A DNA stretch of 64,000 nt from Chloroflexota bacterium (lineage in GTDB: Bacteria > Chloroflexota > Dormibacteria > Dormibacterales > Dormibacteraceae): the NCBI GenBank assembly GCA_005883575.1, contig VBFH01000033.1:1-64000 (forward strand), given 5' to 3'. Below the pieces are notes generated by a model that was not told the DNA's origin, did not search any database, and saw only the letters and a program-made list of their open reading frames with translations. The translations under genes and the position numbers were made by a program. Shown here in pieces: positions 9,021 through 12,141 of this stretch (its first letter is position 1; each line of letters starts with the position of its first letter).

Positions 9021-10233
9021 GGAGCGCCTCGGACCGCCGGCTGGGGCTCTGCGCAGCCGGGCTTTCCGAATTTTCTTCGCCCTGGTCTTCGTCTTCGCGA
9101 TCATCAGCCCCGCCGCCGTAGTGACCGGGGTGGTGTGGACGGCCCCACCGATCAGCACGGGGAGCGCAGCGACGCAGGACCAGCAGCTCGCCCGGCTGCT
9201 GCCCGCGCCCGACGTGCAGCCGACGAGCCTGCCCGACGCAGCATTCAACGTGTACGCGAACACGCTGTCGGGCACAGTGCCTTGCCCGCTGTGCGATTTG
9301 AAGCCGCGCGTGTACGTGCCCAACAGTGTGGCCGGCACCGTGGACGTCATCGATCCAACCACCTACAAGGTCATAGACCACTACCGCGTCGGTCTCATCC
9401 CCCATCACATCGCACCCGCGTGGGACATGAGCGCGCTGTATGTGGACAACGAGGGATCGAGCAGCCTCACCGTGCTCGACATCCACACCGGTCGCCCAAC
9501 TGGGACGGTGAACATCCCATTTCCTTACAACCTCTATTTCACCCCCGACGGCACCAAAGCCATCGACGTCGTCGAGCGTCTGCAGCGCGTTGAGTTCCGT
9601 GACTGGCGACATGGCTGGAAGCTGTTGAAGTCCGTCGGCATCCCATGGCCCGGCGCCGACCATATGGACTTCAGCGCGGACGGCAGCTACTTCATGATCT
9701 CGACCGAGTACTCCGGCGTCGTCGCGAAGGTCGACGTCAACAGGATGGAGCTCGCCGGCTACGTGCAGGTCGGCGGTTTGCCCATCGACGTGAAGGTGTC
9801 ACCCGACGGTTCTCTCTTTTACGTCACCAACCAGGGCCGCATGGGCGTCTCGGTGATCGATCCGGTGGCCATGAAAGAGGTCCAGTTCATTCCCACTGGC
9901 CGCGGCGCGCACGGCCTGCAGGTCTCCCGCGACACGAAGTCGCTCTATGTGTCGAACCGCCTCGAGGGCTCGATCTCGGTCATCGATTTCGCCACCCACA
10001 CGGTGACGGCGAAATGGGTCATGCCAGGCGGCGGCAGTCCCGACATGCTGCAGCTGAATCCCGACGGTTCCCGCCTGTGGGCGTCGGGCCGCTACAACGC
10101 AACGGTGTACGTGTTCGACACGACGACTGGAAAGCTCATCGCGAAGATTCCGGTCGGCGCCGAAGACCACGGCCTCACTTATTTTCCGAACGTCGGACTG
10201 CACAGCCTGGGACACAACGGGGTGTACCGCTAG
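8998..10233 (+). CDS. Secreted or membrane-anchored YVTN-type beta-propeller protein
   Basis: 411 aa from a TTG start. An N-terminal signal anchor (FRIFFALVFVFAIISPAAVV, about residues 24-43) is followed by a CPLC motif and repeated propeller blades such as RVYVPNSVAGTVDVIDPTT, SLYVSNRLEGSISVIDFAT and LWASGRYNATVYVFDTTTGK. Blades of the YVTN/YncE type form seven-bladed propellers used for binding or as enzyme scaffolds. Function is unassigned. The gene stops just before the IS110 element, which therefore inserted in an intergenic position. Confidence 0.75.
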   Translation: MKIFRTSKERLGPPAGALRSRAFRIFFALVFVFAIISPAAVVTGVVWTAPPISTGSAATQDQQLARLLPAPDVQPTSLPDAAFNVYANTLSGTVPCPLCDLKPRVYVPNSVAGTVDVIDPTTYKVIDHYRVGLIPHHIAPAWDMSALYVDNEGSSSLTVLDIHTGRPTGTVNIPFPYNLYFTPDGTKAIDVVERLQRVEFRDWRHGWKLLKSVGIPWPGADHMDFSADGSYFMISTEYSGVVAKVDVNRMELAGYVQVGGLPIDVKVSPDGSLFYVTNQGRMGVSVIDPVAMKEVQFIPTGRGAHGLQVSRDTKSLYVSNRLEGSISVIDFATHTVTAKWVMPGGGSPDMLQLNPDGSRLWASGRYNATVYVFDTTTGKLIAKIPVGAEDHGLTYFPNVGLHSLGHNGVYR

Positions 10234-10261
10234 CCGAGTTCCCCTGAAAATTAGAGGCCGC

Positions 10262-11485
10262 TCAGGCAGTCATAGGCTCGACCGTCACTTTGTAACCGAG
10301 CCCCTCGAGGCGTCGCAGGGAGCGTTGGACGATGGCGTCTCGGTTGCGCTGCTCGAAGTGGGCTGGGCCGAGGTCCTGGAAGACGACCCCGTCTTTGAGG
10401 ATGTGATAGATGGCGATCAGGAGCGAGTGCGCAATCGCGACTGCCGCCCGCTTCTTGCCTCGACGTGCCGCGAGGCGCCGGTAGCGGGCGGTGAAGAAGC
10501 TTGGCTTGCGGGAGTGGCTGACCGTCCAAGCCGCCTCCAGCAAGCTGGTGCGCAGCCAACGATTACCGCCACCAATGGACATGTTTCGGCGCTTCCCAGC
10601 CGACTCGTTGTTGCCAGGACAGACGCGAGCCCAGGATGCGAAGTGGGCTACGGTCGGGAACCGAGACATGTCGAGGCCGGTCTCGACCAGGACCTGTTGG
10701 GCAGCTCGAAGGCCCAGACCGGGAATCTCATCCAGGCGTTCCAGTGCCACCTGGAAAGGGCGCATGCGCTGGGCAACCTCCTCGTCGAGTGCAGCTATCT
10801 CCGTCTCCAGCGATTCCAGCAAGCGGAACTGGCTGCGCAGGAGAAAGCGCTGGTGTTGGCGGACCGAACCTGTCAAGGCGCGCTCCAGGTCAGGAAGCTT
10901 GCGGCGGAGAGCGTTCTTGGCCAGGCCGGCGACCGCGGCTGGGTCGTCGACGCCTTTGGCCAGAGCTTGGAGCATGGCCCGGCCGGAGACGCCCATCACA
11001 TCGCTGGCGACGTCGCCCAGCTTGATGTTCGCCCCCTCCAGCAGCTTCTGCATGCGCTGAATGAGGTGTGCGCGTTGCTCGACCAGGGAGCGCCGGTAGC
11101 GGACCAGTTCCCGCCGCTCACGACTCTCACGGTCGGGAATGAAGCTGGCTTTGAGCAGCCCGTGCTGGAGCAGCTCAGCCAGCCACTCGGCATCCTTGAC
11201 GTCGGTCTTCCGTCCCGGAACGGCTTTGACATGCCGGGCATTGACCACCAACAACTCCATGCCCTGGTCTTCAAGCAGGTTGTAGACCGGCTTCCAGTAG
11301 ACCCCGCTGGATTCCATGGCGACGTGGGTGACGCCGGCTGCGAGCAGCCACTCTCGCAAGCGGACAAGCTCATCGGTCATGGTCCCGAAAGTTCTCGTCT
11401 GGGTGTCCTCAGGCGTGATTCGGCATGCCACCACCGTCTTCTTGTGGACGTCCAGCCCACAACACCGTTCGTAGATCGGCCTCAT
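10262..11485 (-). CDS. IS110-family transposase (DEDD recombinase)
   Basis: 407 aa. The N-terminal RuvC-like DEDD domain shows Asp12 (GLDVHKK), Glu58 (AMESSGVYWKP), Asp95 and Asp98 (RKTDVKDAEWLAELLQHG). The C-terminal transposase_20 domain has IPGLGLRAAQQVLVETG and SWARVCPGNNESAGKRR with the likely nucleophile Ser295, then RRGKKRAAVAIAHSLL. The length is normal and no frameshift is seen, so it looks functional. The ATG at 11485 has a perfect GGAGG 6 nt upstream. Established work on IS621 shows that such recombinases are guided by a bridge RNA from the non-coding end. Confidence 0.95.
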   Translation of the reverse strand: MRPIYERCCGLDVHKKTVVACRITPEDTQTRTFGTMTDELVRLREWLLAAGVTHVAMESSGVYWKPVYNLLEDQGMELLVVNARHVKAVPGRKTDVKDAEWLAELLQHGLLKASFIPDRESRERRELVRYRRSLVEQRAHLIQRMQKLLEGANIKLGDVASDVMGVSGRAMLQALAKGVDDPAAVAGLAKNALRRKLPDLERALTGSVRQHQRFLLRSQFRLLESLETEIAALDEEVAQRMRPFQVALERLDEIPGLGLRAAQQVLVETGLDMSRFPTVAHFASWARVCPGNNESAGKRRNMSIGGGNRWLRTSLLEAAWTVSHSRKPSFFTARYRRLAARRGKKRAAVAIAHSLLIAIYHILKDGVVFQDLGPAHFEQRNRDAIVQRSLRRLEGLGYKVTVEPMTA

Positions 11486-11675
11486 TGCCTACCTCCATCG
11501 AGTCGGCTATCGAGTGGAGGGCGACCTGGACCAGTGAAGAGTTTCCCCTGCGTGCTCTCGCCGAAGCGAGGCGACATTCGTTGGTACCCAAAGGTCGCAG
11601 CTCACGTTAGTCACCGGGCTCCCACGCACCAAACGCAAACGAGCATCTCGACCACTCGACGCAAGCCAATTTTCA
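11486..11675 (-). ncRNA. Candidate bridge RNA region of the IS110 element
   Basis: This non-coding segment upstream of the recombinase has the size and place expected for an IS110 bridge RNA. In transcript sense it contains CTCGC-UUCG-GCGAG (11570-11557), a 5-bp stem closed by a C(UUCG)G tetraloop, and CCTCCA/TGGAGG arms (11520-11492) that would pair with the Shine-Dalgarno of the recombinase. Just outside the proposed end lies CTCGG-CACCA-CCGAG (11692-11678). Target- and donor-binding loops were not worked out. Confidence 0.35.
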
Positions 11676-11715
11676 TACTCGGTGGTGCCGAGGAGGCATG
11701 GGTCGTTAGTCCGGA

Positions 11716-12141
11716 CTATCCGTTGATCGGGATGTCGGCGTCGCCCGCCTCGTGATAGACGCGCGTGGCCTCGATCCGGAAGATCGCCCTTCGCTCTCCT
11801 GGAAACGACCACGGATAGCGATTGACCTTCAGGTACCGGCGGCTGAGTGCGTCCATGTGCTCTCGCCATCCGTTCTCTGACCAGGAGACGACCTTCCCTG
11901 TTACGGCCAGGAAGCGGTGGGGATTGCGCGTGTCGACAACCGACAAGGCAACCGCTGGTCGCGAGCGCATGTTGGCCGCTTTCACCCGGTCGACGCGTGC
12001 GTTGACGAGCAGCGTGTCACCGTCATGATCGATCCACACTGGCGTCACGTGGGGCGTGCCGTCGGCACGCACGGTGGCGAAGTGTGCAAGCGCGTTGCCT
12101 TCCAGAAGGTCGATGAATTCAGGCGGGATGACTGCGGGCAT
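11716..12141 (-). CDS. PPOX-class (pyridoxamine-phosphate-oxidase-fold) flavin/F420-type oxidoreductase
   Basis: 141 aa, a single split beta-barrel domain. The N-terminal ALAHFATVRADGTPHVTPVW is the classic start of PPOX-class F420-dependent proteins, followed by DTLLVNARVDRVKAANMRSR and VSWSENGWREHMDALSRRYL. These small dimers bind F420 or FMN. It is divergent from an LLM-class enzyme (37 bp between starts), a common F420 pairing. Start ATG 12141 lies 7 nt after a TAACCT -10 box (leaderless). Confidence 0.8.
   Translation of the reverse strand: MPAVIPPEFIDLLEGNALAHFATVRADGTPHVTPVWIDHDGDTLLVNARVDRVKAANMRSRPAVALSVVDTRNPHRFLAVTGKVVSWSENGWREHMDALSRRYLKVNRYPWSFPGERRAIFRIEATRVYHEAGDADIPING

What the first reader, a model, noticed from the sequence alone, without database searches (positions are those of the whole stretch)
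10234..11716. Intact IS110 element with a candidate bridge RNA and matching inverted octamer ends
The recombinase retains all four DEDD residues and the serine. The 190-nt non-coding end contains a C(UUCG)G hairpin and a stem that would pair with the recombinase Shine-Dalgarno, suggesting RNA-level control. TGAAAATT occurs at both proposed ends in inverted orientation, which is uncommon for IS110 itself but known in the IS1111 subgroup, whose bridge RNA is usually placed downstream instead.
Basis: partly seen in the sequence, partly recalled or inferred. Interest (0 to 1): 0.5.

Follow-up and report, generated by a model that had tools for sequence, protein, structure and literature searches.

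The report
IS110 jumping gene with bridge RNA
This is an intact, RNA-guided jumping gene of a known kind (IS110); its guide RNA matches the repeated host sequence beside which the element sits, and its ends carry a paired motif that its relatives share although published descriptions say this group mostly lacks one.

Summary
The finding is real and largely right. A covariance model built from 44 relatives without the window hits it once in 64 kb (11659-11509, E 3e-15). The target loop shares GACTAAC(G) with the flank that abuts the left end; the donor loop repeats the right end (CAGGGGAA). Another contig of the same genome keeps an element-free junction with the gene order of relatives.

Corrections. 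The octamers are not the ends: they are subterminal, 5 and 29 bp from the inferred AC core. They are not rare in this clade: 41 of 51 elements (window included) have an inverted repeat of 7 bp or more, and its seventh base covaries. The Shine-Dalgarno hairpin is neither unusually stable nor generally conserved. The element is IS110-like, not IS1111-like.

The target is a dispersed, REP-like host repeat (109 exact copies in 17 genus genomes, control 3). The two flanks come from different ancestral loci: a rearrangement or assembly chimera coincides with the element. Ordinary as a system; the conserved covarying repeats are the new detail.

The parts
10240..11706 (-). whole IS110-group element with one copy of the AC core (about 1467 bp)
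   Evidence: homology to ends of multi-copy relatives; divergence of the element-free contig C58 at 10240/10241; end sequences
10262..11485 (-). DEDD recombinase, 407 aa (D12, E58, D95, D98, S295)
11509..11661 (-). bridge RNA (about 150 nt); model hit 11659-11509
   Evidence: covariance model built without the window, 70.4 bits, E 3.2e-15, only hit in 64 kb at E up to 10
11605..11615 (-). target-binding loop, left target guide GGTGACTAACG
   Evidence: GACTAACG identical to the LE flank; own-versus-permuted test over 51 elements
11540..11550 (-). donor-binding loop, left donor guide CAGGGGAAACT
   Evidence: 8-nt match CAGGGGAA to the right end
11528..11536 (-). possible right donor guide CACTGGTCC (discontiguous pairing with GACCCATG of the left end, by eye)
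   Evidence: RDG x RD own-versus-permuted 0 of 500 over 40 elements, contiguous stems only; only 3 bp contiguous in the window itself
11510..11517 (-). terminal helix P0, 3' strand CCACTCGA (pairs with TCGAGTGG 11659-11652)
   Evidence: own-versus-permuted 0 of 300
11521..11527 (-). donor-loop helix P3, 3' strand AGGTCGC (pairs with GCGACCT 11598-11592)
   Evidence: own-versus-permuted 0 of 300; 7 of 7 pairs with changes on both sides among 44 relatives
11557..11570 (-). hairpin P4 CUCGC-UUCG-GCGAG inside the donor half (UUCG loop at 11565-11562)
11668..11675 (-). left subterminal inverted repeat TGAAAATT
   Evidence: conserved in relatives
10245..10252 (+). right subterminal inverted repeat (TGAAAATT on the plus strand)
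11676..11704 (-). left-end extension with the conserved CCCATGCC and a short GCC/GGC hairpin, 29 bp between repeat and core
   Evidence: alignment with relatives
11705..11706 (-). core dinucleotide AC, left junction
   Evidence: inferred
10238..10239 (-). core dinucleotide AC, right junction
   Evidence: inferred
11707..11721 (-). left target flank, arm of a dispersed host repeat (GGATAGTCCGGACTA)
10227..10237 (-). right target flank TCGGCTAGCGG; continuous with GACTA-AC on contig C58

Best explanation
An autonomous IS110-group insertion sequence. SHOWN by sequence: an intact recombinase; a structured RNA of about 150 nt upstream of it with a target loop that repeats the left flank and a donor loop that repeats the element's right end; an element-free junction elsewhere in the same assembled genome. 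INFERRED from IS621 biology (PMC11208160, passages seen): the recombinase excises the element as a circle, the bridge RNA pairs with the RE-LE donor junction and with a target ending in GACTA, and strand exchange at an AC core inserts the circle without a duplication beyond the core. The target is an arm of a dispersed, REP-like repeat of the host genus, so the element has many landing sites (inferred). The inverted TGAAAATT motifs lie beside the donor region and are conserved and covarying in relatives; they most likely serve end recognition or synapsis by the recombinase (inferred; untested).
For: Covariance model from 44 relatives without the window: one hit in 64 kb, E 3.2e-15; in the own genome 2 hits, this element and an IS110 remnant. 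20 of 26 pairs show changes on both sides, reached by 0 of 500 shuffles. Helices, own versus permuted over 48 elements: P0 and P3 0 of 300 each, P1 2, P2 0, P4 6 of 300. Target guide versus own flank: mean shared run 7.82 against 4.74 permuted (maximum of 300 permutations 5.27), 51 elements; window 8 nt. Donor guide matches the right end by 8 nt in the window and by 6 or more in 51 of 56 elements. Junction on contig C58. Recombinase domains and residues.
Against: Right target guide not shown: own 3.35, permuted 3.27, 126 of 500. Only one full copy, so mobility is not seen directly. The flanks belong to two ancestral loci, so the junction is not a simple insertion. The window's guide-flank run of 8 is not unique: its flank also shares 8 nt with one other element's target-loop segment and 7 with two more (mean 5.18), and its loop shares up to 7 with other flanks (mean 4.02). 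The RNA alone does not fold better than shuffles (z -0.85). No Rfam family matches at its threshold.
Confidence: 0.93

Rival explanations
1. An IS1111-type element whose bridge RNA has been moved to the left end.
For: Inverted subterminal motifs at both sides.
Against: Recombinase 407 aa (IS1111: 330-350; subgroup with IS110 395-455, PMC11187229 section 6); RNA upstream; extensions of 29 and 5 bp instead of 7 and 3; plasmid elements annotated as IS110 family or unannotated, from Actinomycetota, Pseudomonadota and Chloroflexota, carry the same RNA (7 of 10 loci).
Confidence: 0.04
2. A relic: the element arrived recently, kept its parts, and no longer moves.
For: Single full copy; no relative in 41 other genomes of the family at E <= 1e-60.
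Against: Open reading frame, catalytic residues, RNA loops that match target and donor.
Confidence: 0.2
3. The TGAAAATT pair is a chance match of AT-rich octamers.
For: Eight bases only; 10 of 51 elements fall below 7 bp.
Against: Inverted repeat of 7 bp or more in 41 of 51 elements; own mean 7.18 versus 6.68 permuted, 0 of 500; seventh base in 46 elements T/A 38, C/G 6, A/T 1, discordant T/T 1.
Confidence: 0.03
4. The join of two ancestral loci across the element (propeller gene side and pyridoxamine-oxidase side) is an assembly chimera of two strains that carry the element at different sites, not a real rearrangement.
For: The genome is a 127-contig assembly, and contig C58 ends inside the shared flank with a different neighbour.
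Against: Only one full copy of the element was assembled; both breakpoints sit at GACTA-AC sites, as recombinase- or copy-mediated exchange would also give.
Confidence: 0.45

Closest known systems
IS621 (IS110 group; bridge RNA, PMC11208160; structures 8wt6-8wt9)
   Same: DEDD plus serine recombinase, bridge RNA in the left end with target and donor loops, core dinucleotide, REP-like target
   Different: Recombinase 407 versus 328 aa and only distantly similar (E 5e-11); RNA structures were not compared here; inverted repeats of 7-9 bp in most of this clade against 2-3 bp reported for the IS110 group
IS110 subgroup with 395-455 aa transposases (PMC11187229)
   Same: Recombinase length, upstream non-coding region
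   Different: That paper describes repeats outside IS1111 as not present or short and imperfect, with exceptions; here they are conserved and covary
IS1111 group (seekRNA, PMC11187229)
   Same: Subterminal inverted repeats
   Different: RNA mostly downstream, 330-350 aa recombinase, extensions 7 and 3 bp; none of these met
IS110 elements of Bacillota (Paenibacillus, Alicyclobacillus, Thermoanaerobacter) and of Chloroflexota MAGs found
   Same: 49-61% identical recombinases, same RNA, same repeats in most
   Different: Mostly other targets and target guides

Membership tests
IS110 family | DEDD RuvC-like domain PF01548 plus PF02371 with conserved serine | tested here: met
   SA rather than SG after the serine
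IS110 group | long non-coding end with bridge RNA upstream of the recombinase | tested here: met
IS110 group | target loop that matches the insertion site | tested here: met
   left guide; the right guide alone is inconclusive
IS110 group | donor loop that matches the element ends | tested here: met
   left donor guide; right donor guide 0 of 500 in the family, weak in the window
IS110 group | no or very short subterminal inverted repeats | tested here: not met
   the papers name exceptions, so this is descriptive rather than exclusive
IS110 group | circular intermediate and scarless insertion at a core dinucleotide | not testable with these tools
   only an element-free junction seen
IS1111 group | recombinase 330-350 aa and non-coding region downstream | tested here: not met
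IS1111 group | inverted repeats with 7 and 3 bp terminal extensions | tested here: not met
   29 and 5 bp from the inferred core
IS1111 group | recombinase clusters with IS1111 in a tree | not tested
   no named IS1111 references were used

The most novel reading that the evidence does not exclude
A broad IS110 clade with left-end bridge RNAs carries true, covarying subterminal inverted repeats of 7-9 bp placed asymmetrically around the RNA-read donor. Repeats and bridge RNA then act together at the ends, and repeats do not separate IS1111 from IS110. In addition, the element here sits at a recombination junction of two target sites, and an element-free allele persists in the same assembled genome, as expected if the recombinase rearranges chromosomes in nature.
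Probability: 0.4. Interest if true: 0.5.

Novelty: new member of a known kind. Interest (0 to 1): 0.33.

Why it matters
Bridge recombinases have been proposed as genome-editing tools (PMC11208160). A compact, well-aligned clade with a covariance model, inferred ends and a conserved motif outside the RNA-read donor says which end sequences a minimal donor may need. It also gives a testable case of target choice into a host repeat and, if the junction is real, of rearrangement between two target sites.

Tried and rejected
Alternative RNA helices GGTCG x CGACC and TTGGTGC x GTACCAA were tested and show no excess over permuted pairs (162 and 229 of 300 permutations at least as high). A third, GGTGCA x TGCACC, is in excess overall (0 of 300), but is short in the window (3.5) and in most of the 13 divergent members printed (L010 6.5 and L011 4.0 are the exceptions), and was not adopted. 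Rfam search: two matches, both below their family's threshold and elsewhere than the RNA. Single-sequence folding of the RNA is uninformative. Shine-Dalgarno control: see observation check; the probabilities printed there for the longer window transcripts (0.20-0.36) are for a stretch one base 3' of GGAGG, by a slip in my script. Right target guide: not shown. Search for a second full copy in the own genome: none. Search for the displaced neighbour of the oxidase gene found a similar small-ORF end and repeat on contig C9, but with another neighbour, so the reciprocal junction was not found. In the family only the own genome holds the recombinase at E <= 1e-60 (1 of 42). A tree with named IS1111 references was planned and dropped.

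Rows dropped: of 80 relatives 76 had 235 nt or more upstream; with the window 77 were aligned and 56 (window and 55 relatives) remained after removing those 90% or more identical. One search used 51 of 56 (flank or loop too short in 5). One search resolved the right end in 51 of 56; in two of these (L044, L012) the chosen right end lacks the motif and may be the wrong place; they were kept in the counts. A1 and A2 used 48 of 56, A3 44 (window, L041, L046, L055 left out; those three relatives were then hit by the model). One search used 40 of 56. In one search the inverted repeat was found by script in 3 of 7 plasmid elements (L150, L151, L159), seen by eye in L153, and unresolved in L152, L155 and L156.

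Full report
OBSERVATION. The window (G000:C44:1-64000, one of 127 contigs of a 3.6 Mb genome) carries one IS110 recombinase gene on the minus strand, 11485-10262, 407 aa, with both family domains. The residues taken as catalytic, D12, E58, D95, D98, and the conserved serine S295 are present (aligned with IS621). TGAAAATT is exact and inverted at 10245-10252 and 11668-11675.

ENDS. The scan of genome contigs matched 526 places that encode relatives; the best 80 were kept, 49-61% identical. Some genomes hold several copies (eight of the 80 loci are from Paenibacillus brasilensis, five from Paenibacillus sp. HW567). Copies within a genome share sequence up to a target-CCCATGCC boundary on the left and, in HW567...ATTTTCAGGGCAGAA on the right. 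Both boundaries lie outside the TGAAAAT motifs. Carried over to the window, the left junction is GGACTA-AC-GACCCATG (11712-11697, minus) and the right one CAGGGGA-AC-TCGGC (10246-10233, minus). The element is about 1467 bp with one AC. The placement of the core is an inference from the pattern of relatives and from contig C58.

BRIDGE RNA. The upstream regions of 56 non-redundant elements (window and 55 relatives) align well (48 of them). A structure with a terminal helix, a target-loop stem with an inner hairpin, and a donor-loop stem with a hairpin was derived from one relative. On 44 relatives without the window 94.3% of cells pair, 20 of 26 pairs have changes on both sides and the covariation score is 0.339 against 0.191 in shuffles, 0 of 500. 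Because the structure was drawn from one row, the stronger test is pairing own strands against strands of other elements (48 elements): 0 of 300 permutations reach the observed value for the terminal and donor-loop helices, 2, 0 and 6 for the other three. In the window the terminal helix is TCGAGTGG/CCACTCGA where most relatives have GGCTGG/CCAGCC, a compensated change. The covariance model, which never saw the window, finds 11659-11509 minus with 70.4 bits, E 3.2e-15, and nothing else in 64 kb at E up to 10. The own genome has one more hit, a truncated IS110 remnant on C104.

GUIDES. In 51 elements (window and 50 relatives) the target loop shares on average 7.82 nt with the element's own left flank, against 4.74 for permuted pairs (largest of 300 permutations 5.27). 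The window shares 8 (GACTAACG, of which the last base belongs to the left end). Its flank also shares 8 with one relative's loop segment and 7 with two more (mean 5.18), so the case for the window rests on position and on the family-wide pattern, not on the count alone. The donor loop matches the right end by 8 nt (CAGGGGAA). The right target guide is not visible (126 of 500), the right donor guide is supported in the family (0 of 500) but short in the window. In the window a discontiguous pairing of CACTGGTCC with GACCCATG looks like the pattern described for IS621 (by eye; passage of PMC11208160 seen).

INVERTED REPEATS. In 51 elements with a resolved right end (window and 50 relatives), 41 have a perfect inverted repeat of 7 bp or more between the two subterminal positions. 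The mean is 7.18 against 6.68 permuted, 0 of 500. In the 46 elements where it could be read, the seventh base agrees at both ends in 45: T/A 38, C/G 6, A/T 1, and one discordant T/T. Counts are of elements, not independent events. Distant plasmid elements keep the inversion with other letters (CGAAAAT in L150, GAAACT in L151, ATGAAACGC in L159; 3 of 7 by script). [quoted passage not shown] PMC11208158 was seen only in search listings. My searches returned no paper whose listing reports long conserved repeats in this clade (listings only, and subscription papers are mostly not held).

TARGET AND FLANKS. TCCGGACTAACC, which holds the target, occurs 8 times exactly in the own genome and 109 times in 17 genus genomes, against 3 for the reversed control; with up to one mismatch 36 against 18 in the own genome. 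Several copies form a two-arm palindromic repeat with arms 42 bp apart, REP-like in form. On the propeller-gene side the element joins sequence that on contig C58 continues without the element as CCCGACTA-AC-TCGGC. Of 16 propeller loci fetched from other genus genomes (two further partial matches were not fetched) 12 show about 1.5 kb downstream, and 11 of these have the C58-type acyl-CoA dehydrogenase there; the twelfth (L094) does not; four are cut by contig ends. On the other side, 4 of 16 other genomes have the oxidase gene; three show 1.1-1.5 kb beyond it and none has the propeller gene there; the fourth ends after 228 bases. So the window unites two ancestral loci at the element. Recombinase-mediated exchange, homologous recombination between two copies, and an assembly chimera all fit; I cannot decide between them.

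SHINE-DALGARNO. Locally the SD can be paired, but 77 of 500 shuffles fold at least as stably, and the median unpaired probability over 54 elements is 0.535; 4 of 53 relatives are as closed as the window. Its upstream strand also overlaps the terminal helix of the bridge RNA, so the two structures compete. A switch is possible but unsupported.

VERDICT. A well-formed new member of a known kind, with one detail (conserved covarying subterminal repeats in a left-end bridge-RNA clade) that qualifies a published distinction.

Noticed in passing
G000:C104:58216-58859 (L003, L091, L149): Truncated second IS110 element, 62% identical over residues 1-157, with its own bridge-RNA hit (E 2e-8); its donor loop GGGTTAAC matches its right end by eye.
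   Followed up: partly
own genome and 14 of 16 other genus genomes, e.g. G000:C9:12147-12206, C81:18386-18445, C86:166431-166490: Dispersed palindromic repeat with two TCCGGACTA-like arms 42 bp apart; on G001:C14 and G000:C9 it overlaps or abuts the end of a small ORF that looks DUF559-like (name recalled, not searched).
   Followed up: partly
G000:C58:68783-68955 against window 10068-10240: Contig C58 overlaps the window by 173 bases and then continues without the element: a second allele or strain in the same assembly.
   Followed up: partly
L159:527-2169 (Variovorax paradoxus plasmid): Two bridge-RNA hits 1.49 kb apart in the same direction, which suggests tandem IS110 copies with an abutting RE-LE junction.
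   Followed up: no
window 10325-11755, plus strand: A 476-aa open frame antisense to the recombinase; most likely a by-product of high G+C coding.
   Followed up: no
G005:C35 and G005:C56 (L102, L108): Two full propeller genes at 81-82% identity to the window's in one genome; may be strain mixture.
   Followed up: no
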